NCBI GenBank assembly: GCA_033439295.1
Contig: JAVTLE010000004.1
Span: 744,012-808,011 of the forward strand
Direction of reading: 5' to 3'
DNA: 64,000 nucleotides
Origin: Deuterostichococcus epilithicus
Lineage: Eukaryota; Chlorophyta; Trebouxiophyceae; Prasiolales; Stichococcaceae
Position numbers and translations under genes: made by a program. The notes under the pieces are model-generated. The model saw only the letters and a program-made list of their open reading frames with translations, was not told the DNA's origin and did no database searches. Positions 9,717 through 63,188 of the stretch are shown here, one piece after another (within the stretch, counting starts at the first letter, position 1; each line of letters starts with the position of its first letter).

Positions 9717-12700
9717 ATGCGGCACGGCTGGCCGCTCCTGATTGCCGCTGCCCTGCTCTTGGCTGCGGCGGTGGGTGCGCAAGACGCACCACCGCGGCCA
9801 TACAAGCCGCCGAGCGATGCAGACCTGCAGAAAAGTGAGTTGGCTCTTCAGAGGCCTGACAGACCGCCATTGCGCTGCAGCACCCCGGGCCACGTCTGGG
9901 AGGCATGCATTGCTGTGAACCACAAAGGTTGGCAAATTAGATGGTGACAACAAACTGGGAAGGGGGGGTGGAGGGTATGCCTGTAGTGTGCGCAGTGCAG
10001 TCCCATGCATCACAGCTGACCCGCATGGGAATGCCAAGAGTGTTTGCGGGCAATCACTGGCGAAGTCTGCACCACGCTGGCCAATGTCAGACAGACAGCC
10101 CGTGACAATACCGAATCAGCCGTGTTCCAAGCACCACACACCTGTTACTGAGCATTCTTGGACGCGCACACGCAGTGTGCTCGCACTCGCTGGAGCATGG
10201 CGACCCGCAGTGCCAAAACGGCGGCCGGCTGCACGCGAACAACGGCACCGAGCCCGACCCCGAGCGCTACAACAACTGCGTGCAGTGCGACTGCCCGCCC
10301 GGCTGGGCCGGCATCGACTGCAGTCGTGAGTTCACTCTGTCAACTTTGAGCTCTGTACATGCAGCCGCCTGACCTGTGCAGGTGCAACAGAGCACGCGCA
10401 CGCGGGAGCACGCTGCATGCCTGTGCCACGCATCGAGACTGCAGCCGTGGACCTCAATTGCGCTCTGATGTAATCTGTCCGTTTGCCATTGACCTGGCAA
10501 GTCCCTGCCCGAGGTGGGGTGCATGGGCTTCCATATCCGGCCCCCTGCCCCAGGCCCAAGAGTCCAGAGGCATCAAGACATTATTCCGACAGAACCTGCC
10601 TGCGGCCCCCTGCAGTGTGCGAGGGCAAGGACGTGTGCCCACTGTGGACCGACCCCGCCACCGGCAACCGCATCGCGGCGACCGGCTGCTCCGACGACCG
10701 GCTGCTGCCAACGGCGTTCGAGCTGCAGCACGGCAAGCACATGACGTGCGAGTGCTCGGGCGCGAAGGGCGACCGGTCAACCGCCTGGGCGTGCGGGCAG
10801 CAGCCGTTCACGCACTGGGACGCGACGGTGCTGCACCTCAACGGCACAGGCAAGCTCGATTGTTGAGGGTTTAGGTTTCAGGACCCCCTCCTGCTGCCTG
10901 CAGACGGCCCCCGCTGCTCTGAGCGTCGGAGGCCGGCATTGGGCAGGGCTGGGATCGATCCCACATGAGCTGGTCACGAGTCCTGGAGACTCGTATGGAC
11001 GGAAACGATCTGGATGCAGGGCAGCCTGTTCTTGCTGCCCACAGCGGAAGAACTCAGCGGGGGAATGCTGGAGCCGCCGGCCGCTGTCGCCTAGCACCAG
11101 CATTACGACGAGCTATCATCCCTCTCAATCCCTCTCAAGCCCTCTCAATTCAATTTTTCTGGTTCGACATTGCTCATCACCATGCAGACAAGCCGGCGAC
11201 GCTGAAGCTGACGGAGCGAGCGGGCATGCCGTCGCAGGATGAGCACCCGGGCAACTGCCCCGGCCCTGGTGGCACAGAAGTGGTGCGCTCAAATGTGGTT
11301 TGGCAGATTCCGAGATGTGAAGATGTGAAAATGTAATCAAGCTTGTACCTAAGCTGTCATGTGCTCGGCACACCAGCTGTCATCTGACTTGCGCACACAC
11401 TTTGGTGGCATGGGCAAGACAGCAGGGGGCCGACTGTCAGCACAGTCAGCTTGGTTTACAGATGCGCTGCAAAGCATTGTTCGCCAATCATGGAGGCACG
11501 AGCGAAGGCACTGCAACTCACTGTCTAATCATACCAGAAGTCATCAGCGCCTGACTCCTGCCTCTGTGCGCAGCCCCGCCCTACGGCGCAGCGCCTTATG
11601 CATACCTACACTTCGTCCGAGTCTGATGGCCACGTTGTGCTTAGTGGAATTGACGCAATCTGCTCATTTCCCCCGCAGCCTTGCCCCACTGCACAGCGCT
11701 ACAAGTATGCGTACGCTGTGGTGTGGGAGGGTACCTTCGAGGGGTGCCGCTGGGCGACGGGCGACTGCATCAGCCCGCTCACCGGCGACGACTGCGTCAC
11801 GCTGCGCTGCGACACCAGCAACGTCGTGTGCCCGCCCAACTGTGCGACCAGTTGTAACATATTTCTCATGTGAACAGCGTGTTGCCTACCTTGTCATCCA
11901 CTGGTGACGGCGCTCCCGGCGTGATTGCTGGTCAGTCGGCTATGCATGACTTGTCGCCACGGCAGCTGCACCTGCCGACCGGTATCGGCTTGCCTCCTGT
12001 GGCGCTTTGACCAGCACTGCCTTGTCAAATTTGGTGACTGAAGGCGACTGAAGGCCGACGATGCTGGACGCCCACAGGGGTTGAGCGGTGCCCCGGCTGG
12101 CAGCGCACTTCCTGCGGCCGCATCCCAGGCGAAGGCAAAGCCAGGTGCGCAGTTTCGAGGCCAAGGCTCACAGGTAGCCGGACCCACAGCGGCATCTGCG
12201 TCCCCTGCTGTCGCAGCGTGGCACTCTGCAGGCCTGTGCTGCGCAGACGCGCAGCTGTGCACTGCAGATGCGGCTGCTGCAGCAGCGGCGCACGTCACAA
12301 GTAGCACGGCACACATACACATCTTGCTGCATGCCCTGCGCTGAGCCTGGTGTGGACATGCGCAGGTACTGGAGCCACCGGTGCAACCCGCTGGCGGTGC
12401 CGTCCAATGGCACTTCGATCAAGCTGGCGTGCGAGCCACAGCGGGACAACACAACGAATGCCTTCCAGTGCTACATCTCCCAGGTGGGCCCATGAAACTT
12501 TTGAGAAGTATGGGTTCAGGCCTGAGTGCAGGAGGGTGGATGCCCTTGAGGCTGTGCAGAAAGCCACGCAGAAGCTGCCAAATCAGTTGCAATGTCGACG
12601 CCTTGTTGCTGCCTTGATGCCTGAAATTGGCGCAGACTCCTGGGCCCCTTGATTCAACCAAAACATCTACATTCAACCGAAACGAACGGGTGAACCTGGA

Positions 12701-15700
12701 CCGGGTGCAACGGGGGAGCTTCACGGCAAGCCTGGACATGTAGTGCCCCACGGACCACCGCTCCAGATCCGTGTGGGACTACACGCTCTAAATCAGCAAC
12801 TGTTCATCGCGCCTGCCGAGTGTTCCGACGTTTTGTGCACGCAGGAGGGCAGCTTCATGGCGAGCCTGGGCATGAAGTGCACCGCGGGCGGCTGCCTCTA
12901 CGACGCCGGCGGCCCCGCGCCGCCAGCGCCACCCGTGCCCCACGAGCACAAAACCAACCTGGTGCGCGGCGTTCGCGCCGCTGCAGGTTTCCGGTGCTAG
13001 GGTCAGGTTCGTATCAGCATGCACATGCGGCAGTCTCGGTGGTGCCACTGGCGCCCCGAGCTGCGCCCATGGCACAGTGGCAATGCCCGTGCATTTTGCG
13101 GCTTCTTTTATCTCACAGGCCATGGGGAACCTTGTCAACCCTGCACGTGCAGACCAGCACGAACAGACTGTGCTTGCACTCTCCTGGTCTGTAGCGGGTC
13201 ACGTGATCCCCAAACGTGGTCTGTGCCCACATTAGACGGGCAGCCAGCTGGAAAAAGCCCTCGAACTTGTATCAGGCATTGAGTAGGCGCCATCGCGCCG
13301 ATGCGCTGCCCTGGCAGAACAGGAGGTCCAAGCTAGTCCTGACAGCAGTGTCTGTCAGCTGCATCTGATCTGACTCGATGGTAAATATGACTTCCTCCAT
13401 GCACACAGGAGGAGCTCCTAGCGGTGGGCGCCATTGCATTTGCCATCGCCAACGTGGTCGTCATTGCCGCGATGCTCATCCTGGCCGACAAGCGGGCGTC
13501 GGCGGCGCAGGTCGCGCACTGGTCCAAGGGTGCGGCTCGTCGCAGCCCTCATGGGTTTTGGGCTCATAATGCTGCACAACTGAGTGGTGGGGTGTCAGGG
13601 CTGTCACGGCCACCATTGTCGCGCCCTCTCACTGGCGGCATTGGAGCTGGTGCTTTCCAGGGCCACTACGCCTGACAGCAGTGCCATTCCAGCATACAGT
13701 AGCCTCAGAGCATGCGGGATTCGAGGAATGAGCACTTCATGAGCTCAAGGAGAAAGCATTCTCCTCCCAGGCACTGTCTGCTGCGTGATTCCGCAGACTC
13801 GGCAGACGTTGCGCTCGCCGGCGAGGCTGAGGCGCTGGCGCCGGCGGCTGCGGCGGCCCGCGCACCTGTTGTGCTCAGCTGGTCCCGCATCAGCTGCTCC
13901 GTGCGGAAGGTGCGATGAAGTATCATCTCCTGCAACCGGGGCCCAAATGACTTCGGCATGTAAGCAATGCGTATTGTTGCACACACATTGAGCGTTTTTG
14001 GATGTGGCAAGCGGCTCATCGCAGAGTTTGTCCATGACAGCTGGACCTGCATGCCTCCGGCAGTCGATCCATGAGCAACCTAGGAGCATTGCTTGGTGAC
14101 ACGTTACCGGGGGCTGAGCACAGTTTGCCTTCTGTGGCGGCTGCTGGTGGCAGGGTCGGGGTGGGCGGCGCAAGCGTGTGCTGCGGGGCGTGTCGGGCGT
14201 GTCAGGTGTGCCTGCCGGCGGCGGCGGCTCCGGCGGCGCGTCGTGCATGACCGCCATCCTGGGGCCCTCAGGTCAGCTCCCGGCTTGCACTCGCATTGTC
14301 TCCACGCCTCCGGCTGACGCTGCGGTGGTGGCATCGATGGCCGGCTCGAGCACCTCGATTCTGCATCTGCAGCAGCAGCGCTCCGCCCAAACTCAGCTGT
14401 GTCTTCCGATTGAAGTGCCGGGAATGCTGCCGCAGGCGCCGGCAAGACGACGTTGCTGGACGTGCTGTCGGGGCGGCGCACGGGGCGAGGTGTGGCCGGC
14501 ATCATCAGCCTCAACGGCCACAGGGTGGCCGCGGCCCAGGTGGGCTCAGGTCTCAGGGTTTAGCGTCCGACCAGCAGCGGCTTCTGGCCTCGCTCCTGCT
14601 TCGTAGCGTGGCCGAAACGTCCTGCCGTCCGCAATCCACGAAGGTGGCACAGCCACAGTGACCCACACTGAATGCGCTTCTGCTGCCAGATGCCAGTCCC
14701 TGGTGCCTCCGACTAAAGGTGGCGTCCCTGCGCACGCCGCGCACGGGGCCAGCACGCGCGCCCCCGCCAGCCGCAGCAGCTCCCTACACATCATACAGCC
14801 GCCCCAGGCAGTGTGTGCAGGCTCTGGGCATGGCACGCGCAGGTGCGGGCGCTGGTGGGCTACGTGCCGCAGGACGATGTGCTGCCGGGGACGTCGACAG
14901 TGTGGGAGTTTCTGTCCTTCCATGCGGCGCTGCGGCTGCCGGGCGCGGCGCCGGAGGTGCAAGGGGCGCGCGTGTGGCAGGTGCTGATGCTTCCTGCTTC
15001 CCCCTGCTCGTGCTTCGCTGGGGATGCAGGGCGGCGCGGCGGGGGAGCGGGACGCGCCATGGCAGGCCCTGCCCAGGTTGTTCTGTGCTCACCTCGCGAT
15101 GTACCGTGCAAGGAGCGGCGTGTGGCACTGCAGCGTCGGCTGTCCGTAGGTCGCATGGGTGGGCGGCTGCATGTTGGCGTCAGATCACCAGGCAATTTCG
15201 GAAGCTGCTTTGTTTGCTTGTCGATGATGAGGAACGGTGCATAGCGGAGAGCGGCGGGAATGGGTCACCCTGACTGGAGCTTTGACTGTGGACTGTACGT
15301 CAACAGTAGGATCACCCATTCTCCATCATGGGTCGACTGCCCAGCATGACCCGATTTAACAGCGTCTGGCCTTGCACATGCACTAGCAATTCGAAAGCAC
15401 AGTAAGTCTTGCGTGCGGGTACGGGGGCGGCCCAAAAGTGTGTAGCCCGGAGCCCTTAACCGGGTTGAGTTGGGAGATAGCTCGGGCTTCCAAATGGCAG
15501 GGTGAAAAAGGGGCATTGCCATCCACGGACAGCGATGCCTGGGTGTACGGTCGTCTGCTGTGTGATGGCCTGTCCTCAGGTGACACAGTAAAATGATGCT
15601 CTGCAACCTGTCAGTTTCACATGGTCAAAAACAGCAGGCGTGGAGGAGGTGGTGCAGAGCTTCATGGCAATGGCTTCACGCACACCTGGCAGGCGACTGC

Positions 15701-18700
15701 ATGTTGCATATCCAACTGAATTGAAGGCCTTTTCAGGCCTTGCTAGTGCCGTGTCACAGGTCTTCGAGCAGCCAGGGCTGGCAAAGGTGGCGGCGTCATT
15801 GGCCACGTCTGGCCATGCAGCCTGCCGAAAGCTGTAACAGGGCGCACATCAGTGCTCAAGATGGAAGCACTCTCCGTCACGCACCGCGTCGTCTGCTGCA
15901 GGTGATAGAGCAGCTGGGGCTGGAGAAGGTGGCGCACTCGTTCATCGGCGACGCCTGGATGCGGGGGCTGTCGGGCGGCGAGCGCCGCCGAGTGTCCATC
16001 GCCGCCGAGCTGCTCACGGCCCCCGGCCTGCTCTTCTGCGACGAGGTCACGACAGGTGCGCAACGAAACGAACATCAGCAATGCGGCCACGGTGGCGGAC
16101 ATTCTGGCGGGGCTGGCGGGCCACGGCCGGCTCTGCAGCAGTGTTCTGGCTCTGTTTCTTGGTGCACTCATGCAACGCACACTGCTCGCCGCAAGCCTGG
16201 ACAGCTCCAACACTGCCAAGGTGTGGACACGCCCGCAAGGCTGGCGGGCCGTGGCAGGCTGCGAGCGCCGCTCTGTGCCCGGAAATATCCAGAGGACAAT
16301 TGCATTGCGCTGCTGCGCAGGCCTGGACAGCAGCAACGCAGCCAAGGTGGTGGACATCCTGGCGGGGCTGGCGTCGCGCGGAGTGGGCGTGGTGCTGACC
16401 ATCCACCAGCCACGCCCTGACGTGTTTCGCCTCATGCACCGCGTGCTGCTGCTGTCCGGCCGCGGCCAGGCGCGCTCACCTCCCTCTCTCTGGCATTGAC
16501 GGTGTGCAGTGGGCTGTCCTCGAGGCTCCAGCCGTGCCAGGCTGTCAGGGCAGCAGCAGCAGTAGCGCCAGAAGGTCAGCACGTGCGAGTGACGAGTGTC
16601 CTATCCAGCAGCCGCGCCCCCCTACGTGTTCCGCCCCGTGCACCGTGTGCTGCTGTTGTGCGGCGGCGGCTCGGTGCGCTCCTCAGAGAGAGACGACTGG
16701 CATCATGCAACATGGCCGCCTTTCAGCAGGACGTCTCTGACTGGGCGGCCGCTGCCACCCCAGCACTCCGGGTGCTGGCACAGCAATCTCCAGCGCGCGC
16801 TGGAGGTTGCTGGGGTGAATGTGGCTGTGAGCCAGAGACGTTTGCTGCAGAGGCGCCATGCTGCATGACATCAACAACTGGCCAGCTGAATGCTCATCAG
16901 GGATTGCGGTGGCGCCATGTGTAGGGGCTGGCCTCGAGGCTCCAACCGGCCTGCATACATGCACCGCGTGCTGCAGCTGTCCCGGCGCAATGATTGCCTG
17001 CGACCGAGTCGTACCTCTGCTATGTTGTCGCCTCATCGCCGATGCAAACCCAGTTCCAGCGTCGTCCTCTGTAAATTGCACGTGGGCCATACGGGCATAG
17101 TCTCGAATGCAGAGGCGCATTGCCTGGTGCTGGGCAATGGGCGTGTTACACGGTATCAGTGTTGTACACTGGTGCTGTATCGGACATGGATGCGCAATTC
17201 CTGGCGCTGGGCTGTTCGCCGGCATCCCCTGATCGATTCTGCCACTACCTGATGACCTCATTCCAACATCCGATGCCTCTGCACACCGTCTGCAGGTACC
17301 GCAGGTGGACGCTGTCGCAGATGCGGAGGCGTGCGTCGCGACGCTGGGCTGCATGCCGGCATCGCCCGAGCCTTTCCGCCAAATCATCCCCTCGTTCCGA
17401 CATCGTTCCGACATGTGGTTCGCGCCTTTCGCAGGTGGTGTACGCGGGCGCTGTGACAGACGCAGAGGCGCACTTCGCGGCACTGGGCTATGCGCCTGCG
17501 TCGCCCGACATCTCGATAGCGGACCACATGCTCGACGTGGCCATCAAGTCTCCGGCCGCCGAGGTCGAGCAGCTAGTGGCGGAGTTCCAGGGGTGAGCGG
17601 TTTTAGGAAAGTATTTCAAACTTGAGGGTTCAAGAGGTCTTCAAGGATTTGGCACGGGGTTCTGACACAGCAGGTGGACGTCAGAAGGCCCCGCGCCGGT
17701 CTGTTGCTTGCCAGCACGCCGAGCTCGAGTGCATTCTATCGCAGCTGGATACCTCACCATGCAATAGACCAGTCGGCATGCCAGCGTCTGCGCCTGCTGG
17801 CGGCTGCACTTCTGGCAATGCTGGCAACGCAGGTAGAAGCTCGTGCATCGCAGCTAGAGAGCCACATCTGATTCAGGTCCCTTCTCACCCCAGGTCGAGG
17901 GCTGCGGCAGACGACGCTGCATGGGCGGCGTCGCTGCAGTCGGTACCGTGGCCGCTGCCGCTGGCGCGGCCGTCGCCGCCACTGACAACGCAGCTGCTGC
18001 AGCTCAGCGGCCGGCTGCTGCGTCGCGCCTACCGCCACCCCTTCCTCATCGCGCTCAATTTCGTGGCAGCTTTTGTGACAGCAGCAGGGCTGGGGATTAC
18101 CTTCTACGCCACCGGCTACGAGACCGGCGGCATCCAAAGCAGGTGATCACACCTTGCAAATGTGCATTCTGCATCCGGCGGTGCTGGGTAAATTCAAACT
18201 CTGATGCAGGCTTGCTGTTCTGCTGCCAGTCAGTTCTAAGAGGGAGTTGTCGCTGTCCAAGGCATCAGCCCGTCCAGAAAGCCTGGAACCCGGCGCTGAA
18301 AATCTGGACCCTGGCGCTGAAATCCGGCGACCTGCCTGACACGGTCTTGCTTGTGTGTGCCGCTGCACAGGCTGGGCCGCCTGTGCCTCGTACTACTGTA
18401 GTGTTCCGTAAAGGCTGCCTCGGTTCCGATGCAACTTGACACATCAGACATGCGATGGTAAATGCTCAGCTGTCTTGTGAGTTGATGTCTTTTGTGGTGT
18501 GCCGCCCCGTAGGCTGGGCTGCCTGTTCTTCATGCTGCTGTACCTGTCCATGATGGCGCTGGGCTCGCTTCCAGTGTGGCGGCAGGAGGGGCTGCTCTTC
18601 CACAGGTCCGCACGCTTTCCGTTCTCCTTGTTGTACAGCAGTCCGCGAAGTTCAAAGATCGTGCTTGGTTCTGGCTGGCAGTCACCCACTTTGGGCACAT

Positions 18701-21700
18701 CCTGCCACCTCGGCTGCCTGGAAAACGAACCAAAGGAGCGCAGGCATGCGCTTGCTACGAGGGCAGCAGCGACTTTCGCACATAACCTTGAGCCGTTCTC
18801 GCGAGCCTTCTTTTAGTTGCCCCTGCCATGGGGGCCGGGCGGCTGGCACGTACGGCAACGACTTCTCATTTCTTGTCCATGCTTGGAGTTGCCACGAAGA
18901 GCCATCCTGCTCTAATACATATCTAGTCTTATTCAGTTTGATTTAATTCCATTGCGAAATATGACAGGGAGCGGGAGGCTGGCGTGTACGGCACCAACGC
19001 CTACTTCGCCGCGACGGTCGCATTCGACCTGGTGCCCATGCGCGTGGCGCCGCCGGCGTTCTTCGCGGCGCTGTCTTACTGGGCCATCGGCCTGCATGCC
19101 GGCTGCGCGACCTGCGTCCTCGCCTTCTTAGGTGCGCTGCCCGCCTGCTTCGCCTTCAACACTAGCAGCACCTGGGCTGGCTGTGCGAAACTCGCTGCAT
19201 CTTTGCGCCTGCCTTCTGCCTGGCCGCTTCAGCCATGAGCTGTGCGGGACCACCGCAATGCATGTGGCAGCTGCACCCCTGCCCTAACTTGAACCCCTCA
19301 ACCCGAAGCAGGGGTCCACGCGGATTGAGTACAGCATGCAGCCTCAGTGAAGAGCGCGTGCCCTGCCAATGCAACCATCGTCATGCCTGTGCGGTCGGAC
19401 GGCCGTGCGATTCGAGCTTGGTCGCTGCCGCGCTCCCCCCACAGCCTGAGAGCCCAGCTGCGACGTGCCGCGCAGTCATCCTGGTGTGGGCCAACATCGC
19501 GGCCGCAACGATGGCGATGATGATCGGCGCGGCGGCGCCGTCCGACGCCGCCGCTAACACTGCTGGCAGCCTGGCCATCATGGCCTCCCTGCTGTTCGGC
19601 GGCTTCATGCTGAACAAGGACCAGGTGCCGGCCGCCGCCTCCTGGGTGGCGTCGGCCTCCTACTTCAACTATGCCTACGAAGCCCTCGCGGTGAGAGCTG
19701 GCAACATGCCATTTCTGCTAGCAGTTGCTAATGTGCATAGAAGCCCTCGTGTGCATCGCGCACCTGTCGTTCCAAGGTGTGAAACTGTGATGTGGAATCA
19801 ATCCAAGCAGTGCTCTCTGATGTGCTTTCCATCCAAATGGTTTTCTGGCAGCGCTGGCGCCTCTGCCAGCCATGCCCACTGTGTAGAGCCTCACAGGTGG
19901 CGACGACTGAACCCTGCAGTCTGATGCCGGACCTTACTCTTGCAGATCAACGAGTTCCACCGCGCGCCGACGCCATTTTTCTTCACCAGCCCGCTCAACA
20001 GCACGGTGCTGCCGACGCTGCGCGTCAGCGGCGAGGGCGTGCTCAAGGAGTTTGGCTTCCAGGCGCACCGCTTCTGGGGCGACGTCTTCGCCATCGCAGC
20101 CTGCAGTGAGCGGGCTTTCCGCCAGCTGCGACCTGCAGCCTTGAGTGCATGACGCGCTGTGCGAATTGGACCTCGTGTCATGACATGGTTGCATAGCAAC
20201 AGCTGGCGTTGGCTGCCACTCTGCCGCTGCGCCAACAGCCTCGCTCTTGCAAAGTGCAGTGAGCACCTTTCCTGCTGCACATGTGTGACTCCTGGCGCAG
20301 TTGGTGACCCAGAACAGCATGTGGTGGCATGGATGCTGCCGGCACATTTGCCGCTGGCTTGCTTCACGCTACTGAAGATGAGACGCTGTGGTTTCGCGCG
20401 CACTCTGCAGCACTCAAGCCCAGCGGCTCTGCTGCAAGCGCAGTCTTCGTCTTTGCGGGCGCATGACTCATCCGCAGCGCTTGGAACCATGCAAAGACCT
20501 GCAACTGACGGCTTCGTCTGTGTGCGCGTGACCTATTTGACGCTGCTGGCGTCAGGCAGCGCAACAATGCATGCCATACAGCACTCGAGCCATACAGTAC
20601 TGCTATGCGTGCAGGCTTCGCCTCTGCTGGCGTGACCTACCTGGTGCTGCTGGAGTCAGGATGGCTGCTGCGGATGTTTAAAACAACGTTATGGCATTAC
20701 GGTGTGTGCTTGGCATATGCTGACACATCGCCCGCGTGCACCCGCAGGCTTCGTCTTTGCGGGGGTGACCTACCTGCTGCTGCTGGCGTCGGGCTCCGCT
20801 TTCCGCGACAGGCTGGCGGCCTTCAGCTTGCGGCGCCGACCCTCAGGTGCTTGCTTTGCTCCTTGCTGGACCGTTTCCTCGATCAGAGGTCTGTTGACAG
20901 CTTCTCCTGGGGCTGGCGGCATTTTAGCCAGGTGCAGTTCGGGGCTTTCTGCACAATCTTTTGGGGTTTTCAGCTCTCCAAACTGCGTTTTCCTCAGCCA
21001 GGCGACAGCATTCGATTGGTGAAAACCCTGCTACCCAGCCGTGCTCTGTCGTTTCTCTTGCGTGGTGCTGCAGATCGCATGCATAGTGCAGCTTCAGCCT
21101 TGCTCGAGATCCTGTTCCCAACGTATGCTGCATGGCGCATGCGCTGCAGCCCGAGCTCGCTTGCAGCCCGAGCTGGGGGTCGGTGCAGGACAAGCCCCAT
21201 GCGTCAGCACTTGAGCCATGCACTGCTGCATCCAGCCACGCGACGCTAGACAGCCGTAGACTGCTGGAATTTTGGTACACGAGTGCTATGCCCTGGGACG
21301 ATCCTCACCACGCGCAGGCGTGCGGTCAGGCTTCCTGCTGGAGCGTATGCTCAGCACGGGCTCAGTGACGCCGACGCTGGCGTCGCCACGGACCGCAGGC
21401 GGCGGCCTGGAGGAGCAGCTGCTGCCGCTATCTTCAGGCGGTGACGACAGGGACCCTCCCCGGGATGCCGAGGCGGACGCAGGGGACGACGACGACGGCG
21501 AGGAGGGTTTAGAACAGGGTTTTAGCGATCAGACTTCGGGGTTCAGCGGCGGCGGCGCCGGCCTGGACGAGGAGGGTCTGGCGGACGGCGGCTGGGACAG
21601 CGGCGAGCGGGGCTCGCTGCTGCCGCCGGCGGCCATCGCCATCCAGACAAACGGTGAACGGCGCTTGCTTCCCATGACCTTGAGACTCAAACTCTGACCT

Positions 21701-24700
21701 TAGGATCAAATTGCATGCGTCAGAGCCAATGGGATCATGCACAGCCATTCGAGGCATCAGCAACTGGTCGGAGAACCATGGCCTTGCGTCCAGGAGGTGA
21801 GCTGCTTCGAGAAGCTGGGCGTCTTTTCACAGGCGAATCGCTAGAGGCGGCCGCCAATCTGTCCTGGGAGGCCGTCTGCTAGAGGAGCACTGTTCTGAAC
21901 CTGCTCCGAACATATGTTTGCCTTGATCCATGAACCCCTTGCAACCTTTCGCAGGTGACTCGTCAGATATGGCCGCCGTCCTGTCTTGGGAGGACATTTG
22001 CTACAACGTGCGCATCGGCAGCGCCGGGCAGCTGCGGCAGATTCTGACCGATGTCAGCGGCATCGCCGGCGCGCCCGCCGCCGCCGCCTCCCCAGCCAGG
22101 CAGCCAATACCGCCTACCAGTGGCGACGGTGGCTCAGACCATGGCAGCGGCGTCAATGGCACAAGCGGCGACACTGCGAATGGCTTTTTGGCCGGGGACA
22201 CCGCCGAGGCAAATGGCGGCAGCGGCGGCGGCAGCGGCGGCGGCAGCGGCGGCGGCAGCAGCGGCGGCCGCTACGGCAGGCGCAAGGGCAGTGGCGGCAG
22301 CGGCAGCACTACTGCCGGCGGCGGCATGTGCGCAATCCTGGGGCCTAGCGGTGCCGGCAAGACGACGCTGCTGGACATACTGGCTGGCCGCCGCTACGGC
22401 GCAGGTGCGGGGTTGAAAATCGCCACAACTCATACTCGGTAAATCGCAGTGTCACTCAGGACGCCTGCACAGGCCCAGCGGCGCCGGCAAGGTGAAGCTG
22501 CTGGACATTCTTGCTGGCCACCGCAGCGGTGCAAGTGCGAAATGTAGAAGCGTCCAGCAATCTGCTGCATGAAGGCTGTCACCAATGGAGATGGGCAGGC
22601 TACTGTCAGCAACGTAAGAGGATGCAATCCGTGGCGCCCAGTGGCCTGCGCGGTTGCAGCCAGTGGCGCCACCAAGACGGGGCTCTAACGTTACAGCCTT
22701 AAGAAACTTTGTTGAATCACATGTGGCGGTATTATGTCTTTGATGCGCCCCTGACACGTGCCATGGCTGCCAAAGATGCAACAGCACGAGCTAAGAGCTG
22801 GAGTGAGGTATGCACTCCGAATGCCTTGATGCCCTCGGCAATGCTCTTGCTCCGTCTTCGTTGTGTCACTGGCGGTGAATTTATCCGTTTCTCTCATCAT
22901 GCGAAGGCAGTGGACGCAGGTGCTGCTTGCGATGCGAAGTTTGTGAAAGATTTATCTGTCGTCTTCAGCTGCTAATGCACTCTAGTGGTACACCACGCCA
23001 ACATTTTAAGCCTGCATCATTCCACCTGCGGCAGGCGTGTTGGGCGACACCCGGCTAGGCGGCCTCTGACCTGGCTGCGCTGTTGTCTGCACGTTTCTGC
23101 ACCAATTCCTTGGAATGCGCGGCTCTCCGCTGCCGCAGGCGTCTCGGGCGACGTGCGGCCCGGCGACTGGCGCGGCAGCCTCTGATCGCAATTGGTGTTT
23201 CCGCAGCGCAGCGTCAAAGCTGCGCTTTGGGTTTCAAGGCATTCCCACCCTGCCGCAGGCGTCTCAGGCAACGTCCGGCTGGGCGGCCGGCGGGTGGCGC
23301 CTGGTGATGTCTGATCTGCCACTGTGCACTGCTCAGTCGAGAATATGAAACTTTGAGACTATGAAATGAGTCACAGGAGTCTCGGGCGACATCCGGCTGG
23401 GCGGCCGGCGGGTGGCCCCCGAGGAGGTGCGCGACGCCGCCGGCTATGTGCCGCAAGACGACGTTCTGCCGGGCACCTCGACAGTGTGGGAGTTCCTGTC
23501 CTTTCATGCGGCGCTGCGGCTGCCAGCCGGCGGCGCTGGCGGCGTGGGCCCAGCGAGGGTGCGGACGCTGCTGCGCCAGCTGTCGCTGGCCAAGGTGCGA
23601 CTCCAAGTTGCAGTTGCGGCTGCAAGTGCGGTTCTGCTCCCTTTGGAGATGCTTTTGAGCATCTGCAGCCTCTGAGTTTGCATTCGGGGCTTCTGTCCGC
23701 TCTGAGCAGTGTGATGTGGGGCGTCCCCCACAGGCGATAGGCCGTGCAAGCTGTGTATGCGGCTGACAGCATAAACCATGACAGTAAACCCTAAGGTGGG
23801 GGCAGAACAGCTCGCTGTGCAGATGGCGTCTGAAAGCGGTGGAACTGACAAGCGCTTCCTTGACGCCCTACACGAGCTGCTCTGCACCACCTTTTGAGAC
23901 CTGTTTAGTGTTAGCAGCAGCCTGGTCAGCATGCAGCTGCAGATCACAGCGCTGTCAGTTGGAGGTTCGGATCCGGCTGAGACGCAGGTCAAACCCGACA
24001 CCAGCCTCCTTTGGCTTGGCAGGTGGCACACAGCTTTATCGGCGACGAGTGGGTGCGGGGGTTGTCGGGCGGCGAGCGCCGCCGCGTGTCCATCGCTGCT
24101 GAGCTGATCACCGCGCCACGCCTCATGTTCCTGGACGAGCCTACCACCGGTGGGGCTTCTGAACGGCAGTTTCCTTCTGTTCGGCAATTTCTCTACATCG
24201 CTGGAAAGAGAGTTGTCGACTTGTCGGTGGACACACAGACACGATGTACCCTCTACAAACCACTTTCAGAAGGCATTGCGCCGCAGCTGAAAGTCAAGTG
24301 TGTGACAGACACTCTGGGCCGCCCCTGGACGTTTCTGCAGGACCTAGTGGAGTTCTGCAAGAGGCGTGCATTGCTACACTGCGGCAGGGGCATGCACACT
24401 CGACTTCAGAGTAGCGAAACTTGCCTCTTGCAGAATTCCACTAGGTCCTGCAGGAGTGGCCAGGGCGGCCCAGCGTGTCCGTGACGCTTTGACTCTCAGC
24501 TGCGGCACCAATGTCTTTGAAAGATCTGAACCGGTTCCCATCATCAACTGCAGGGTGCGAGATCTGAATGCATAGATCCTGGAACTCTCGATCGGCACAC
24601 GGACAGTGGATTCCTGCTCAAAGCCAAGAGCTGCCGCAATGCATAGGCTCACTGTCAACCGTGCCATAAGCATGTATCAAAATGGCACAAAGTTTTGCCC

Positions 24701-27700
24701 AAGTCATGTCGGACAGGTCCTTCCGCAGCACGTTCTGTTGGCGCAAGTCTGCTGGCGACACAGGCCCGACGATGGTGTGCAAAGATGTCGACAGCTCTCG
24801 TGTTGACCTGCATGTTTCGCGGCGCAGGGCCTGGACGGCACCAATGCCGCAGCATTCGTGGAAATCCTGGCAAATGGCATTTTCTCTGCGGTCAAGGCAG
24901 CACACTGGCAATTCAATTCATTCACACTTGGCAGGACAGCTCCCACGCCAAGGCAGGCCTGGACAGCACCATTGCGGCAATGGCGATGGATGTTCTGGCG
25001 GACCTGACGGCCGGCGAGCGGCGTGGCTGACGCATTCTATCAGAGAACCGTCATCAGGAGTCAGAACACGTCAGAATATGTCAAACAGTGACTTTTCTGC
25101 GTCCCCTATCCCCAGGCCTGGACAGCACCAACGCGGCGACGGTGGTGGACATCCTGGCGGACCTTTCGGCGGGCGGCGTGACGGTGGTGCTGTCTGTGCA
25201 CCAGCCGCGGCCGGACATCCTGGCCACTATGCGGCGCTGCCTCATCCTGTCCGGCTACGGCCGCGTCGTCTACTCTGGTGCGCACTGGATGGGAACCCTA
25301 AAAACCTGTTTGAGGTTGGATCTGGTTGCGGCGGCCGGTTGACCGTTTGGCGCTTGTGCATCTTCGCGATGCTGCTTGTTGGAAGTGGACTTCCGGCAGT
25401 CCAGACCAGTGGAGTGGAAGAACGGTGCTTGCTGCCACCTCCCCAGTGCGCAGCATACTGATGCACTGCCCAGCGGCTTCGTCCAGAGCCAGCTGAAAGG
25501 CAGCTGAATCCGGTCCGGTCCATCATCTGCCGCCCCCAGGATCCTCTGCTGCATGCACTGGCATTGCCTCCTGGCAACACCCCGACATCAAGGGGGCATT
25601 TCCCTTCCTCAACGTCCTCTAGAGATCCTCTCGCGATGCTCCCAACGAAAGTCAACCCTCAAACCACGAGCAAGCCGTGAGGGAGCGCGAGAGGGAGCGC
25701 TTCGCATCGCTGGGCCGTTGAGGCGCCGCCCTCTGGCAACTTATACATGCCCCTTTCACAGACCCTTCCAACCGCGCCCCTGTATCACAAACCTTTTCGG
25801 CATTCACGCCCCCTCCCCCCGACTGCGCAGGCCCGATGGAGCGTGCGAGGGAGCACTTTGCGTCCCTGGGGCACGCCGTGCCGCGCGCGGTCAACATCGC
25901 GGACGCGGCGCTGGACCTGGTCATCCGCAGCCCGCCGGCGGAGGTGGCCCGTCTCGTGGCAGGGTTTGGCGCGGGGCCGGTGGCGGCGGCAGACGCAGAG
26001 GCGCTGGCGCGCCTCACGCTGGACGGCGCCATGCGCACGGCGCAGGGGTCAGTTGGACTCCTCCTGGACTCCTGAGCTCTTGTTCGAGGGGTGCATGAGT
26101 TCCGTGCCCTTGAGGTGACGCGCCTCGCGCTTGACGGCGCGACGTGCGCCGTGCAGCATCGGCTGCAAGGCTGCTGCTTCAGTCCAGTGGTTTTGGCGAG
26201 ATTGCACCGCGGCCAGCTGGCAGCGTTGTGCCCACACTGCGACTTTCAGCAAGCATCGTCGCCAAGCGGTGCTCCTTCCCACCCTGCAGCAACCCGGTGG
26301 TGCTGGCGAGGAAGTACCGCGCCAGCTTCGGCGCCCAGCTGCGGGCGCTCAGCGGGCGCGCCGCCGCCAACGCGAGGCGGCACCCTGGCCTCATCGCCGT
26401 CAACTGGGGCGCCACCTTCGTCGTGGCGGCCGGCCTGGGTGCGCATTTGCACATTTTCTCGGTATACCTGATGTCGATGCTGCTGCGGTCGTGTGCAGGG
26501 AACTCGCTGCACCGGTGCACCGTTGCCTGGGTTGACCTGCGAGCCGCCCCCGTGAGCTCAGTGCGCCAAGAATAGCATCGGGCCATCCACCTGCTGCGCC
26601 GCCTTGCCTGGCCGCGGTGCTGCTGATGTGCGCCTCTGCCATTTGCTGGAGAGACACTGCCAGCACAAAAGAAGGTGTGATTCTTTGTCGCACAAGCGGC
26701 GAGTACTTCATCCTGGCGCGCAAATGGGGCAGCATTGAGAGCGGCTGGGCAGTCAGGCCTCCATGGCGCTGTACCTGGCCCCATAAGAAAAATCGAAGAT
26801 TTACACACCCCTATCCTATACACGCGCAGGCGGCGTCTACTCCAACCTGGCACGCGACTCCGGGGGCATCCAGAACCGGCTGGGCAGCCTGGCCTTCATG
26901 GTGCTGTACCTGGGCGTCATGGGGCTGTCCAGCCTGCCCATCTGGCGCGCCGAGCGCCTGCTGTTCATCCGGTGAGACAATGCAGCTCTCGACCAAGTTC
27001 AAACGTGCATAGGGATTCCAGGCTCTCAAGTGCGGCAAGCGCGCAGCATGCTGTCTCAGGCTTGCCCATCGAGGAGCACACAACGACATTCTTTCAACGT
27101 GAGCCTCGGTGCAATTACAGTGTAGTGTCTCCCTCCAGATCCGCAGGGCCGCCACTGACATCTGCTGCCCAGGTGGCAGACGGCTGGCACAATGGCACGG
27201 CCTACTTCAAATCGGATTCTCGGACCGCCGAATTCATTTTGCATAGCCAAACGCGATCCTATCGTTTGGGATTCCATATCCTCTCCTTTTGTGGAGAATG
27301 GAAGGCAGGGCAACGACCTTTCTTCTGCCGCCAGATTGCATTGTCCTGCCATCGTGCGGAGCACCATCTCTCATGTGAACCTTTTCCTCCGATGCAGCGA
27401 GCGGGCGGCCGGCGTGTACGGCACTGCGGCCTACTTCCTGGCAACCGTAGTCTGGGACTTTCTGCCCATGCGCATCGCGCCGACGGCGCTGTTCGCGGCC
27501 ATCACCTACTCCGTCATGGGGCTGCGGCCGGGGCTCGGCCGTGTCCTCAGCTTCTTCACGGTGCTGGTGCTGACCAACCTGGCGGGGACGGCCATGAGCA
27601 TGGCCATCGGTGGGTGCCTCATCCTCTGCTGGACTGAGCCCGGCAGAAAGGTTCTCGCGGCACAGTGAGGCAGTTTTGGGGCTCCGTTCTGCGGCTCTGG

Positions 27701-29527
27701 CATGCCAGTCGTCGCTCTCGTGCACTCCCAGACGGTGTACAAGCCTCTCAGGGCTGCACGCGCTCGGGAGGAGGCCTGATTACGGACAGCGACAGCTGGA
27801 TTGTCTGCGGTGCTTGCCTTGTGCCGGCTGAGCATCGCTCGTGGAAACGTGGTCGGCATGCGGCAACGCCAGAGTGGGAGTCTGTTCGACCAAGTTGAAG
27901 CTCAACAGACACACAAATGCGGCATGGTTGATGTGCAGGCATCGCATTGCCGTCGCAGCCGCGGCCAACCTCACGGGCGGCCTAGCTGCGCAAGTGCCTT
28001 TTGCAAGCGACACATGGATACAACGATCAAATATCGGTCCCCGCACAGGTGCCGCATCGCCCTCGACAGCTGTGGCCAACAGCGCGGGCGGCCTGGCGGT
28101 GCTGCTGGCGGCGCTGTTCGGCGGCTTCCTCATGAGCCGCGCGCAGATGCCCGCGCTCACCCGCTGGCTGTCCAGCCTGTCCTTTGTCAGGTGACGCTTG
28201 GCCAAAATGATGGTCTTTGGATTACAAGCGACCATCTACATTTCAGCCGGCATCGGCAGCAGCAGCTCTATTGGACTGTGTCTGTGCTGTGTCATTTCGA
28301 AAGTTTGTCAGCACCTTTTAAGGGCAGATTTTTGTGCGCACCCATTGGCAGCCCCAGCCTGGCCGTTGCTGTCAGGGGCCTGCCTGCGGCAGGAGGCACC
28401 TGATGCAGTGGTGGCAAAGTTGCCAGCGTTGTGTGGCTGCGCTGTGCGGAATGCATGTGGTTTGTACGGCTCTTGGCACTCCAACTCCTGGCCCATTTTC
28501 GGACCGATGCTCTGCACCTCGTGATGTCTTGCATGATGCGCTGGTGCGTTGCGCAAGTGCTCAAGCCAGTGCACAGCCTCTCAAGTACACCCGGACCGTG
28601 CCAGGCCAGGTGTCAGCTGCAGGGTTCGCACCAGGACCTGCGGTCCAGTTGCCGGCAGGAGCGGCTGCGAAACGCTGCAGGACAACCGCAAGCAAGCAGT
28701 TGTGCAAGCAGGCCAGACTCAGCGAGCCTGCAGTCCGTACAGAATTTCTATAAGGTGTGGCACTTCCTGCTAGCAGGTACGGCTACGAGGCGCTGCTGGA
28801 CAACGAGCTGCACGGCGCCGAAGACTTCTACTTCACGCCCTACGCACAAAAGGTGATTTTGTTTTAGTGATAGGCATGGTTCTTCGACACGACATACAAA
28901 ACGATGGAACTTCAGCGAGATTGGCGCCCAGCACTTCTTTTTGATGTGCTCTACGCCCAGGGTGATTCGGCCTGTCTCATCGGCGCACCAATGAATGCCG
29001 CATGGGGCCCCGGTTCTCGGGCCTCGACCGAGGTGTGTGGTGGCCAAACATGCGGGAGTGTGCTCCCCCAGATCTGCCGCAGCGCGGCGAGGGCAGATCT
29101 TGCCGTGCCCTGTGCAAGTTGTCCCCACTTGCGCCCGGCTGCGCTGTCCCATCAGCCTGGTGCGCAGCGCGTTTCCCGTGACGTGCTACTCGTGAGCCAG
29201 CTCATTCTGAAACACATCTGAGCTCTGGCGGCGCACTGACCTCCAGCCCAGGTCACCTTTTCGCCGGAGGGCATCCCGAAGGAAAACTCCCCAGCGTGCC
29301 ACGAGGCCGTGCCTCAAGCCCTCCTTCTGCTCTTCAGGTCATCTCATTCACCGCAGGGCATCCCAAAGGAGAAGATCCCCAGCGTGCGCGTCAGCGGCGA
29401 CATCGTGCTCGGCACCTTCGGCTTCCAGCCAGGCGCCTTTTGGGGCGACGTCGCCCGCTTGGTGGCGCTCCTGGCGGCCTTCCTGGCAGCCACCTTCCTG
29501 CTGCTCAAGTATCGGCGGCAGCCCTAG
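9717..29527 (+). CDS. Full-size ABCG (WHITE-type) transporter with EGF-like ectodomain
   Basis: ATP-driven membrane exporter; substrate unknown. Thirty-three exons join in frame to about 1818 aa. Exons 1-21: 9717-9834, 10176-10325, 10616-10849, 11188-11279, 11679-11869, 12366-12483, 12845-12961, 13409-13529, 13797-13909, 14154-14271, 14436-14539, 14843-14980, 15902-16055, 16321-16469, 17435-17592, 17894-18142, 18513-18605, 18968-19131, 19476-19690, 19946-20105, 20748-20846. Exons 22-33: 21318-21653, 21955-22404, 23377-23594, 24023-24149, 25116-25277, 25831-26047, 26290-26438, 26830-26971, 27398-27609, 28049-28190, 28777-28852, 29357-29527. Order: signal peptide; EGF-like module (residues 40-90, [10 protein letters not shown]); Cys-rich ectodomain; TM at 342-370; NBD1 ([33 protein letters not shown]); TMD1; linker; NBD2 ([33 protein letters not shown]); TMD2. 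Both H-loop His are present. NBD1 has DEV where DEP is usual. Two adjacent half-transporter genes is the alternative, splitting near Met at 21349. Confidence 0.82.
16081..16265 (+). repeat. Two decayed copies of ABCG exon 14 start inside intron 13
   Basis: About 16070-16130 (AACATCAGCAATGCGGCCAC onward) and about 16193-16260 (GCCTGGACAGCTCCAACACT onward) are diverged copies of the beginning of exon 14 at 16321 (GCCTGGACAGCAGCAACGCA). Both precede the true exon in the same orientation, and the second retains the upstream GC-AG context. Confidence 0.8.
16600..17390 (+). repeat. Ladder of exon 14-end and exon 15-start copies in intron 14
   Basis: 16600-16685 copies the 3' end of exon 14 and runs through its donor into intron (CACCGTGTGCTGCTGTTGTG against CACCGCGTGCTGCTGCTGTC). 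A shorter copy lies near 16957-16990. Copies of the exon 15 start lie at about 17085-17140, 17155-17235 and 17293-17385; compare GACGCAGAGGCGCACTTCGC of the exon with GATGCGGAGGCGTGCGTCGC of the last copy. Confidence 0.8.
18828..18870 (+). repeat. Decayed copy of ABCG exon 18 start
   Basis: GCGGCTGGCACGTACGGCAA resembles GGAGGCTGGCGTGTACGGCA of exon 18 (starts 18968), about 130 bp upstream in intron 17. Confidence 0.6.
20440..20670 (+). repeat. Two to three copies of ABCG exon 21 in intron 20
   Basis: Copies at about 20500-20562 and 20603-20662 (GGCTTCGCCTCTGCTGGCGT, then GACCTACCTGGTGCTGCTGG) match exon 21 at 20748 (GGCTTCGTCTTTGCGGGGGT, then GACCTACCTGCTGCTGCTGG). A third short match lies near 20442-20465. 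The second copy keeps a GCAG acceptor directly before it. Confidence 0.85.
22473..22545 (+). repeat. Copy of the NBD2 Walker A exon end in intron 23
   Basis: CCCAGCGGCGCCGGCAAGGT followed by a CTGCTGGACATTCTTGCTGG block repeats the end of exon 23 (CCTAGCGGTGCCGGCAAGAC, CTGCTGGACATACTGGCTGG), about 70 bp after the true donor. Confidence 0.85.
23028..23306 (+). repeat. Three acceptor-bearing copies of ABCG exon 24 start
   Basis: Copies at about 23028-23072, 23130-23176 and 23249-23306 each begin CTGC(C/G)GCAGGCGT and continue like the exon 24 start at 23377 (GTCTCGGGCGACATCCGGCT). The third is nearly identical to the exon over about 40 bp. All three keep an AG acceptor in place. Confidence 0.87.
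24822..25022 (+). repeat. Two copies of ABCG exon 26 start in intron 25
   Basis: About 24822-24877 (CAGGGCCTGGACGGCACCAA) and 24951-25022 (CAGGCCTGGACAGCACCATT) repeat the acceptor and beginning of exon 26 at 25116 (CAGGCCTGGACAGCACCAAC). This intron occupies the homologous position to intron 13 in the first half of the protein, which also carries two copies. Confidence 0.87.
25680..26160 (+). repeat. Copies flanking ABCG exon 27 on both sides
   Basis: About 25680-25722 (GAGAGGGAGCGCTTCGCATC) resembles the start of exon 27 (GCGAGGGAGCACTTTGCGTC). After the exon, about 26112-26158 (CGCCTCGCGCTTGACGGCGC) copies its end (CGCCTCACGCTGGACGGCGC). Confidence 0.75.
27170..27995 (+). repeat. Decayed copies of ABCG exons 30 and 31
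   Basis: About 27172-27222 (GGCACGGCCTACTTCAAATC) resembles the exon 30 start (GGCACTGCGGCCTACTTCCT). About 27955-27998 (GCCAACCTCACGGGCGGCCT) resembles exon 31 (GCCAACAGCGCGGGCGGCCT). Each lies upstream of the exon it copies. Confidence 0.7.
29252..29312 (+). repeat. Copy of the last ABCG intron-exon junction
   Basis: CAGGTCACCTTTTCGCCGGA then GGGCATCCCGAAGGAAAACT duplicates CAGGTCATCTCATTCACCGC then GGGCATCCCAAAGGAGAAGA at the exon 33 start. Here the copied unit includes intron sequence upstream of the acceptor. Confidence 0.85.
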
Positions 29528-61988: not shown

Positions 61989-63188
61989 GAATTTACATTC
62001 ATTGGCTCGAGATGATTGCAGCAGCCGCATTTTTGCCGCACGCACGCCAGCAGCATGCAGGATCGATTTTTGGAGACGTCAGATTCGATAAGTCCTGAGC
62101 ATCGCGAAATTCCGAACGCAACTATGTGCAGTGCAACTACAGCAAGCATGCTGCACCCCTAACGCCGTCCTTCTGCAGCCACCACCTCTGCGCATATAGC
62201 ACCGCACCTCTCCAAATTGTCAGCTGGTATCCATCACTGTACCTCAACGTGATGCTCAGGCCTAATTTCCAAACGCAACTAGGTGCAGCGCAAGTACAGC
62301 AGGCACGCTGCACCCTTAACAACGTCACCCTTCAGCCGCCGCCTCTGCGCGCACAGCACCACACCTCTCCAGGTAGTCAGCTGGCACCCGTTAACGTAGT
62401 ACCTCAACGTGATGCTCATGCTTGGCTGACCCTGCGCAATTACGGTCCCCCCACCTGTCTCGACTTCATCTCGCTGGATGCGGGAAAGTCAATTGGGTGC
62501 CGCACTACTCCCACAATGCCTAGCACACTGCCTTGTCCAATACGTTTCGCTATAGCTTTTGCCTGTTTGACACTACTGACCCTTGCAGCCACCGTCTAGC
62601 GCACCTGGGACACTTTCCTGTCTGCCTGACCTCGAGCCAGGTGCCTTTTCTGTTGTGTGCATGCTGCTTGGCCGATCCCGCCTGAGTGCATTCCACCCGG
62701 CTCGCAGCCTTAGTTGCGGGGAAAGTATCGCCGCACTACTCCCGCTGCACCAGGTCGATGCGGTGAGCACGAGTCTACACTTACCGACGACAGAGCCTCA
62801 GCTGGGCCGAGCCAGAAGAGGTCCTAACGATGGGCAGCTTGCGCTCTATGATAGCGACCAACCTTTATCAAAAGCACAGCAGCCTTGGCCTTGCAAGCTC
62901 GTGTGGCGTGCGACTGCAGCGGGTTGGTCCAAGTTTTCGAATCCGGTGCAAACCAGCCCTTCTTGAGTCCACGCTAACAGCAGCTCTCTTTGATTCTGAT
63001 GCTTGTCGGATCTTCGAATGTCCCTGCATGGCTCGGTCAACCTGCTGTGACTTACCGACACACCGCCTGGCCGCACGCCACCATGTCAGCTGCGGCAGTG
63101 CCAGCTCAGGTGCGTGCTTCAAATATAAATGTGAAGTTGCAGACACCACAAGTGCATACAAGCCTGCAACGACTGGACGTGTGCGAAT
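61989..63188. other. Intergenic, 1.2 kb, with a direct repeat
   Basis: No supported gene. A diverged tandem duplication of about 165 bp fills about 62105-62420, listed separately. The remainder shows only short chance open frames and should contain the promoter of the RING/RBR gene. Confidence 0.5.
62105..62422. repeat. Diverged tandem duplication, unit about 165 bp
   Basis: Two successive units begin near 62118 (CGCAACTATGTGCAGTGCAA) and 62275 (CGCAACTAGGTGCAGCGCAA). Both end with GTACCTCAACGTGATGCTCA-like sequence (near 62239 and 62399). No open frame spans both. Confidence 0.88.

What the first reader, a model, noticed from the sequence alone, without database searches (positions are those of the whole stretch)
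16056..29357. ABCG introns are populated by decayed copies of the adjacent exon, often with its splice site
At least nine introns of one gene contain one to four diverged, same-strand copies of the nearest exon end (intron 13, 14, 17, 20, 23, 25, 26/27, 30, 32). Copies usually include the acceptor or donor and some flanking intron. The same pattern recurs in O-FucT, FNT, bHLH1, bHLH2 and SDR2 in this window, so it looks like a property of the genome. No mobile-element ends or target-site duplications are visible. Local duplication across exon-intron junctions followed by decay would both lengthen introns and seed new exons. I know of no standard name for such an intron class.
Basis: partly seen in the sequence, partly recalled or inferred. 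Interest (0 to 1): 0.88.

Follow-up and report, generated by a model that had tools for sequence, protein, structure and literature searches.

The report
Decayed splice-junction tandem duplications in introns
In this green-alga genome many introns carry worn-out copies of the neighbouring exon's edge, probably left by short tandem duplications across the splice junction, so introns may have grown by copying their own borders, most densely in one membrane-transporter gene.

Summary
In the ABCG gene 21 of 67 tested exon ends (16 of 35 predicted introns) have a same-strand copy in the adjacent intron; about 0.2 are expected. Over 324 kb (window plus 26 loci of the same assembly) it is 75 of 1052 exon ends versus 4.7 expected; wrong exon end 6 of 1052, reverse complement 5 of 1052. 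Held-out loci alone: 13 of 320 versus 1.6. ABCG is a hot spot.
The copies match the junction-side exon end, lie a preferred distance away (median 125 bp) and are mostly 72-86% identical; 48 of 68 carry a stop or frameshift. No mobile element was found.
Best reading: local tandem duplications of about 100-160 bp across splice junctions, whose outer copy becomes intron and decays. Contiguous units are shown for only 13 of 51 BLAST pairs; elsewhere the intron half is missing more often than neutral decay predicts. No gapped pair reaches 90% identity, hinting at a past episode. Function and new exons are unproven. Related single cases are in print; this density was not found in the listings searched.

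The parts
9941..29527 (+). ABCG-type ABC transporter gene, gene-finder span (36 predicted exons, two of them decayed copies; by eye the true start codon is probably near 9717)
   Evidence: PF01061 matches
12713..12753 (+). copy of start of exon 12845-12961, offset 134, 83%
15003..15065 (+). copy of end of exon 14843-14980, 76%
15766..15818 (+). copy of start of exon 15902-16055, 84%
16072..16246 (+). two tandem copies of start of exon 16321-16469 (blast alignment 16072-16246 to 16201-16373, 180 columns, 67%; best copy 16072-16118, 87%)
16597..16670 (+). copy of end of exon 16321-16469, 83%
17159..17369 (+). tandem copies of start of exon 17435-17592, period about 137 (alignment 203 columns, 65%)
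18371..18427 (+). copy of start of exon 18513-18605, 74%
18836..18872 (+). copy of start of exon 18968-19131, 78%
20433..20660 (+). three successive copies of start of exon 20748-20846 (offsets 304, 237, 133; nearest 20615-20660, 85%)
21835..21881 (+). copy of start of exon 21955-22404, 72%
22472..22539 (+). copy of end of exon 21955-22404 including donor gtgcg, 82%
23026..23310 (+). ladder of three copies of start of exon 23377-23594 (offsets 342, 238, 118); the copy at 23259-23303 was called an exon by the gene finder
   Evidence: gap in Trebouxia protein
24829..25022 (+). two copies of start of exon 25116-25277 (24829-24871 and 24957-25022); the latter called an exon by the gene finder
   Evidence: gap in Trebouxia protein
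25679..25740 (+). copy of start of exon 25831-26047, 72%
26112..26156 (+). copy of end of exon 25831-26047, 80%
26184..26263 (+). copy of start of exon 26290-26438, 76%
26689..26778 (+). copy of start of exon 26830-26971 with about 7 bp of intron, 77%, offset about 134
27943..27991 (+). copy of start of exon 28049-28190, 80%
28324..28375 (+). copy of end of exon 28049-28190, 77%
28662..28686 (+). copy of start of exon 28777-28852, 84%
29270..29299 (+). copy of start of last exon (model 29357-29527; homology reaches back into the preceding 20 bp), 90%
37388..37495 (-). outside the given range: copy, in a minus-strand gene, of an exon start (exon 37198-37323, 95% over 59 bp) together with about 50 bp of intron tail (about 70% by eye); nearly a whole 123-bp unit

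Best explanation
Shown: copies of exon edges lie in the adjacent intron, same strand, at a preferred period near 125 bp. Upstream copies match the exon's acceptor end and downstream copies its donor end, and most are broken as coding sequence. Inferred mechanism: short tandem duplications (unit about 100-160 bp) arise locally, as in fill-in and end-joining of staggered breaks or nicks. When the unit spans an acceptor, the duplicate gives [intron tail + exon start][intron tail + exon start + rest of exon]; the gene still makes the same protein if the inner splice site is used, so the outer copy becomes intron and is free to decay. The mirror case holds at donors. A duplication wholly inside an exon, or of a whole exon with both sites, changes the protein and is likely purged, so junction-spanning events are the ones that survive; exon conservation also keeps their traces readable longer than intron-intron duplicates. 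Repeated rounds give ladders. The lack of gapped pairs of 90% identity or more hints that the burst is over or has slowed.
For: Right-end matches 75 of 1052 exon ends versus 4.7 expected; wrong-end 6 of 1052, reverse complement 5 of 1052. Offsets of 68 nearest copies: median 125, IQR 111-148, range 82-287, no preference for multiples of three (22 of 68); 154 ungapped repeat segments within 400 bp versus 3 in shuffles; the held-out loci also peak at 100-125. Of 54 upstream records 42 reach the acceptor, of 29 downstream ones 22 reach the donor (within 3 bp). Contiguous units exist: L016:9178-9469, 133-bp unit, 92% ungapped, across an acceptor; L029:7061-7482, four-rung ladder, period about 119, each rung with CACAG and exon start as read by eye; 13 of 51 pairs overall, 12 of them at a predicted exon. 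Among pairs under 200 bp apart, contiguous (12 of 13) and partial (24 of 38) ones have alike offsets (medians 124 and 133.5, p 0.49). Identity by codon position 0.816/0.790/0.753 and 48 of 68 copies with a stop or frameshift: decaying, not coding. The Trebouxia protein lacks the two ABCG copies called as exons. Repair of double-strand breaks with overhangs yields tandem duplications (PMC5730883, passages read).
Against: In most events only the exon half of the unit is recognisable. Intron-tail homology reaches p<=0.05 in 3 of 33 acceptor and 4 of 16 donor cases with cheap gaps (2 of 33 and 3 of 16 with strict gaps), although simulated neutral acceptor tails of 55-75% identity give 48-85%; tail score does not track copy identity. 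14 of 38 partial pairs lie 200 bp or more apart against 1 of 13 contiguous ones; I take them as second rungs, untested. In-frame stops are fewer than a uniform-mutation model gives (6 of 1120 codons versus 17), so weak constraint or biased mutation is not excluded. Part of the junction bias is ascertainment, because exon-anchored pairs stay readable longest. The acceptor AG is kept in 15 of 23 and the donor GT in 8 of 17 copies, so no strong purge of the competing site is seen. Exon-only pieces reach 95%, which weakens the claim of a finished burst. No relative's DNA and no transcript data were available.
Confidence: 0.66

Rival explanations
1. Exon-edge copying: only the exon end plus the splice dinucleotide and a few intron bases is copied into the intron, with about 75 bp of unrelated spacer between (templated insertion, or a process tied to the splice junction).
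For: Mean homology falls to background within about 10 bp (acceptor) to 20 bp (donor) of the splice site; intron-tail homology is missing in most cases, below simulated power; two donor copies share exactly the first 12-13 intron bases and then stop (L018:2117, L005:5762); 14 of 38 partial pairs lie at 200 bp or more.
Against: 13 of 51 pairs are contiguous tandem units at similar divergence; under 200 bp both classes have alike offsets; weak pooled tail homology (Fisher 0.016 and 0.0035 with cheap gaps, 0.072 and 0.051 with strict gaps). Templated insertions would often be inverted: no inverted pair within 500 bp by blastn in 324 kb, and reverse-complement exon-end matches sit at chance (5 of 1052); but an ungapped scan does find some inverted segments within 1 kb (11 in 234 kb; 14 in 26 loci versus 2 shuffled).
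Confidence: 0.19
2. The copies are functional alternative (mutually exclusive or alternative-acceptor) exons.
For: A few keep an open frame and a splice site (the copy at 37388-37495; 24957-25022 and 23259-23303 were called as exons).
Against: 48 of 68 have a stop or frameshift, and divergence is nearly flat over codon positions; nearly all are partial exons; the Trebouxia protein lacks the two called copies.
Confidence: 0.05
3. A mobile element or introner family carries the copies or spacers.
For: Introners occur in green algae (PMC9860276, passages read); 8 spacers have two to five matches in the 234 kb sample, which I did not inspect (ladder copies inside long spacers are the likely cause).
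Against: No spacer matches another spacer; three of three tested copy-bearing introns have no match outside their own gene in the 46.8 Mb genome (that search skips very common words).
Confidence: 0.03
4. cDNA- or RNA-templated insertion of exon fragments.
For: Boundaries sit near the splice junction; one of 39 and one of 24 outer flanks score 13 or more against the neighbouring exon, 0.08 and 0.26 expected.
Against: On average the outer flank does not resemble the neighbouring exon (7.26 versus 7.27 and 7.49 versus 7.55); intron bases AG or GT are often present (15 of 23, 8 of 17).
Confidence: 0.03
5. Assembly artefact or chance similarity.
For: None found.
Against: Copies mostly differ from the exon by 14-28% (10th-90th percentile of 68), too much for haplotype or assembly duplication; shuffles and wrong-end controls are near chance.
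Confidence: 0.01

Closest known systems
Junction-spanning tandem duplication in potato RdRp gene PGSC0003DMG402000361.L (Ma, Lan and Niu 2016, PMC4974935; abstract and passages read)
   Same: The duplicated segment holds the 3' part of an intron and the 5' part of the next exon; splice signals come with the duplicate.
   Different: One recent case that made a new intron; here there are dozens of old events and the outer copy lies inside the existing intron.
Pseudogenic (decaying) exons of mammals (Morais and Harrison 2009, PMC2718932; abstract and passages read)
   Same: Decayed duplicated exons near or inside their parent gene.
   Different: Reported for 0.4-1.0% of mammalian genes with a protein-level search; here 35 of 335 predicted introns in 17 sampled loci by a DNA-level search (the two methods are not comparable). 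Here they are partial exon ends with a preferred period and strict end polarity.
Intron gain by tandem duplication of an AGGT-bearing exon segment (Rogers model, as cited in PMC4974935; Drosophila cases in PMC2891723, abstract read)
   Same: Tandem duplication of coding sequence with one copy becoming intronic.
   Different: That model makes a new intron as long as the unit; only 1 of 83 records has an offset equal to its intron's length within 5 bp.
Small tandem duplications from repair of staggered breaks (PMC5730883 and PMC8355091, passages read; Vaughn and Bennetzen 2014 seen only as a citation)
   Same: Direct tandem repeats of limited size.
   Different: Observed there at nuclease cut sites; here old, decayed, and seen through a splice-site filter. 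I found no size figure to compare in the passages seen.
Introners (PMC9860276; passages read)
   Same: Mass remodelling of introns, found in green algae among others.
   Different: Introners are families of similar introns dispersed over the genome; here each copy derives from its own neighbour exon.

Membership tests
Tandem duplication across an intron-exon junction | direct orientation, local, source adjacent | tested here: met
   75 of 1052 right-end versus 5 of 1052 reverse complement; offsets 82-287
Tandem duplication across an intron-exon junction | unit contiguous, includes both intron and exon parts | tested here: inconclusive
   13 of 51 pairs contiguous, 12 at predicted exons; most others lack a recognisable intron half
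Tandem duplication across an intron-exon junction | empty site in a relative | not testable with these tools
   no relative's DNA was at hand; the Trebouxia protein lacks two copies called as exons
Pseudogenic exons | disabled by stop or frameshift | tested here: met
   48 of 68 records
Pseudogenic exons | whole-exon duplicate | tested here: not met
   2 of 83 records span both exon ends, predicted exons of 31 and 36 bp
Intron gain (Rogers AGGT model) | intron equals one duplicated unit | tested here: not met
   offset within 5 bp of the intron length in 1 of 83 records
Introners / transposons | multicopy related introns | tested here: not met
   spacers do not match each other; three of three tested introns unique in the genome
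Introners / transposons | target-site duplication or terminal inverted repeats | not tested
   no scan for them was run
Mutually exclusive exons | intact alternative exon under coding constraint | tested here: not met
   nearly flat codon-position identity, frameshifts

The most novel reading that the evidence does not exclude
The alga has, or had, a duplication process tied to splice junctions: exon edges with their splice site, but not the intron tail, were copied into the adjacent intron at a preferred distance of about 125 bp, in one gene on about half the acceptor ends, a directed route of intron growth for which I found no model in print.
Probability: 0.15. Interest if true: 0.88.

Novelty: new variant of a known kind. 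Interest (0 to 1): 0.62.

Why it matters
How introns get longer is mostly attributed to transposons and slippage (general knowledge). A genome in which several percent of exon ends, and about half the acceptor ends of one gene, still show the scar of a junction duplication would give a direct, countable record of intron growth from own borders, with ladders that order the events. Duplicate ages and unit sizes could be read without a relative's genome. The size window near 125 bp and the shortage of young pairs are testable clues to the repair process. It also warns annotators: copies look coding and mislead gene finders (two in ABCG were called exons here).

Tried and rejected
Mobile element or introner: spacer all-against-all gave no matches (8 spacers had extra matches in the sample, not inspected); three introns unique in the genome. 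cDNA origin: no average resemblance of outer flanks to neighbouring exons. Functional alternative exons: codon-position and frameshift tests. Rogers-type intron gain: 1 of 83 records has the right offset. Intron-length test: difference 108 bp (95% CI 62-187), but a length-biased draw explains most of it, so it was not used as proof. Simple one-class tandem-and-decay: intron-tail homology is too weak for most events; kept as the main reading because contiguous units exist with alike offsets. An Rfam scan of the window found nothing. No close ABCG paralogue was seen in the own genome: matches outside the gene are at most 56% over short pieces. Nine paper searches for a prior report showed none in the rows listed; several lists were cut, and most subscription journals are not held. 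Rows dropped before counts: predicted exons under 40 bp and introns whose tested stretch was under 80 bp; low-complexity stretches masked; exon-exon pairs set aside (15 of 66; the best of them is 81%). Exons come from a self-trained gene finder of my own, not from an annotation.

Full report
WHAT WAS CHECKED. The window lies at C4:744012-808011 of a 46.8 Mb, 21-contig assembly. Protein relatives of the ABCG gene point to a green alga, the best hit of the 999-residue query being Trebouxia sp. C0005 at 49%. A plain self-comparison finds 20 same-strand pairs within 500 bp in the window and no inverted ones within 3 kb. With 17 loci of 10 kb added, the counts within 500 bp are 48 same-strand and 0 inverted; over all 324 kb they are 66 and 0. 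An ungapped scan gives 154 direct segments within 400 bp versus 3 in local shuffles, with a peak at offsets of 100-150 bp, 24 direct segments at 400-2000 bp versus 3, and 11 inverted segments within 1 kb; in the 26 loci inverted segments number 14 versus 2 shuffled. So inverted local repeats exist, but they are few and do not follow exon ends (5 of 1052).

GENE MODELS. No annotation was at hand, so I trained a small gene finder on the sequence: 463 exons (median 124 bp) and 442 introns (median 267 bp) in 234 kb. The ABCG model is supported over nearly its whole length by the Trebouxia protein P0001 at 45-53% identity. Two predicted exons, 23259-23303 and 24957-25022, are decayed copies: P0001 has gaps there.

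THE MAIN TEST. For each exon, the 60 bp at one end were aligned to about 330 bp of its own adjacent intron and to the same stretch of other introns. At score 16 or more, acceptor ends match their own upstream intron in 16 of 34 (ABCG), 6 of 61 (rest of window), 17 of 271 (17 loci) and 5 of 163 (nine held-out loci); donor ends match the downstream intron in 5 of 33, 3 of 60, 15 of 273 and 8 of 157. Summed, that is 75 of 1052 against 4.7 expected. The wrong exon end gives 6 of 1052 and the reverse complement 5 of 1052. ABCG differs from the 17 loci at Fisher p 5e-9; the rest of the window does not (p 0.40). In ABCG the copies fall in 16 of 35 predicted introns.

ANATOMY. In 54 upstream records 42 copies reach the acceptor; in 29 downstream records 22 reach the donor. 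Nearest-copy offsets have median 125 bp and IQR 111-148, with no multiple-of-three preference. Identity of 68 copies runs from 0.67 to 0.95 with median 0.78. By codon position it is 0.816, 0.790 and 0.753; 48 of 68 have a stop or frameshift; differing codons are 165 synonymous and 428 not, against 120.5 and 467.4 under uniform mutation; in-frame stops are 6 of 1120 codons against 17. The copies therefore mostly decay without coding constraint; the small synonymous excess fits change on the exon side, but weak constraint is not excluded.

MECHANISM. Contiguous tandem units spanning a junction are seen directly: L016:9178-9469 (133 bp, 92% ungapped), L029:7061-7482 (four rungs, period about 119), and 13 of 51 local pairs overall, 12 of them at predicted exons. 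The other 38 pairs show mainly the exon edge. Below 200 bp (12 of 13 and 24 of 38 pairs) the offsets of the two classes do not differ (medians 124 and 133.5, p 0.49), which argues for one origin; but 14 of 38 partial pairs lie further apart, against 1 of 13, and that these are second rungs is only my assumption. Against the main reading too, intron-tail homology is weak: pooled p is 0.016 and 0.0035 with cheap gaps (0.072 and 0.051 with strict gaps), only 3 of 33 and 4 of 16 reach 0.05, where neutral simulations of acceptor tails give 48-85%, and it does not track copy identity. Either intron tails are lost faster (deletion, or selection against a second splice site), or part of the events copied only the edge. 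I keep the first as more likely.

WHY JUNCTIONS. Inference: a duplicate inside an exon or of a whole exon alters the protein; one across a junction can be spliced away. Exon conservation also makes such duplicates readable longer. Random placement of the same 133 events would give 44.6 exon-intron cases; 82 were seen. The upper limit near 160 bp is not explained by splicing and may reflect the duplication process; the lower limit near 80 bp may reflect the need for a working intron tail.

AGE. No gapped BLAST pair among 51 reaches 90% identity, while 29 lie between 75 and 90%. Under steady births some should be young, so this hints at a past episode. It is a hint only: an exon-only piece reaches 95% (37388-37495) and L016 is 92% ungapped.

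EXCLUDED OR DISFAVOURED. Spacers do not match each other and the three tested copy-bearing introns are unique in the genome, against mobile elements. Outer flanks do not on average resemble neighbouring exons, against cDNA. Offsets do not equal intron lengths (1 of 83), against intron gain by whole-unit duplication.

KNOWN RELATIVES. A single junction-spanning tandem duplication is described in a potato RdRp gene (PMC4974935, abstract and passages). Decaying exons are reported for 0.4-1.0% of mammalian genes (PMC2718932, abstract and passages). Tandem duplications by end-joining of breaks with overhangs are shown experimentally (PMC5730883, passages). What I did not find described is the density, the period, the strict end polarity and the hot spot.

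LIMITS. The exon models are predicted; no relative's DNA, no RNA; 324 kb of 46.8 Mb sampled; heterogeneity among loci is real (permutation p 0.0014).

Noticed in passing
window 24263-24523: Long imperfect inverted repeat inside an ABCG intron (77% self-match on the minus strand over 261 bp), with no other match in the genome; a lone foldback structure.
   Followed up: partly
window 62107-62421: A 157-bp tandem duplication (79%) inside a long predicted intron with no predicted exon involved; in one frame one copy is open and the other has a single stop, so a missed exon is not excluded.
   Followed up: partly
window 37388-37495 (minus strand): Exon-start copy 95% identical while the intron tail of the same unit is only about 70% identical by eye; the exon half seems better kept than neutral decay predicts.
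   Followed up: no
L004:5231-5601: Tandem repeats inside a predicted exon with offsets in multiples of three (48, 75, 123, 171, 231), perhaps a coding counterpart of the same duplication habit.
   Followed up: no
window 46899-47494: Predicted coding region made of diverged GC-rich repeats of 12-60 bp; not translated.
   Followed up: no
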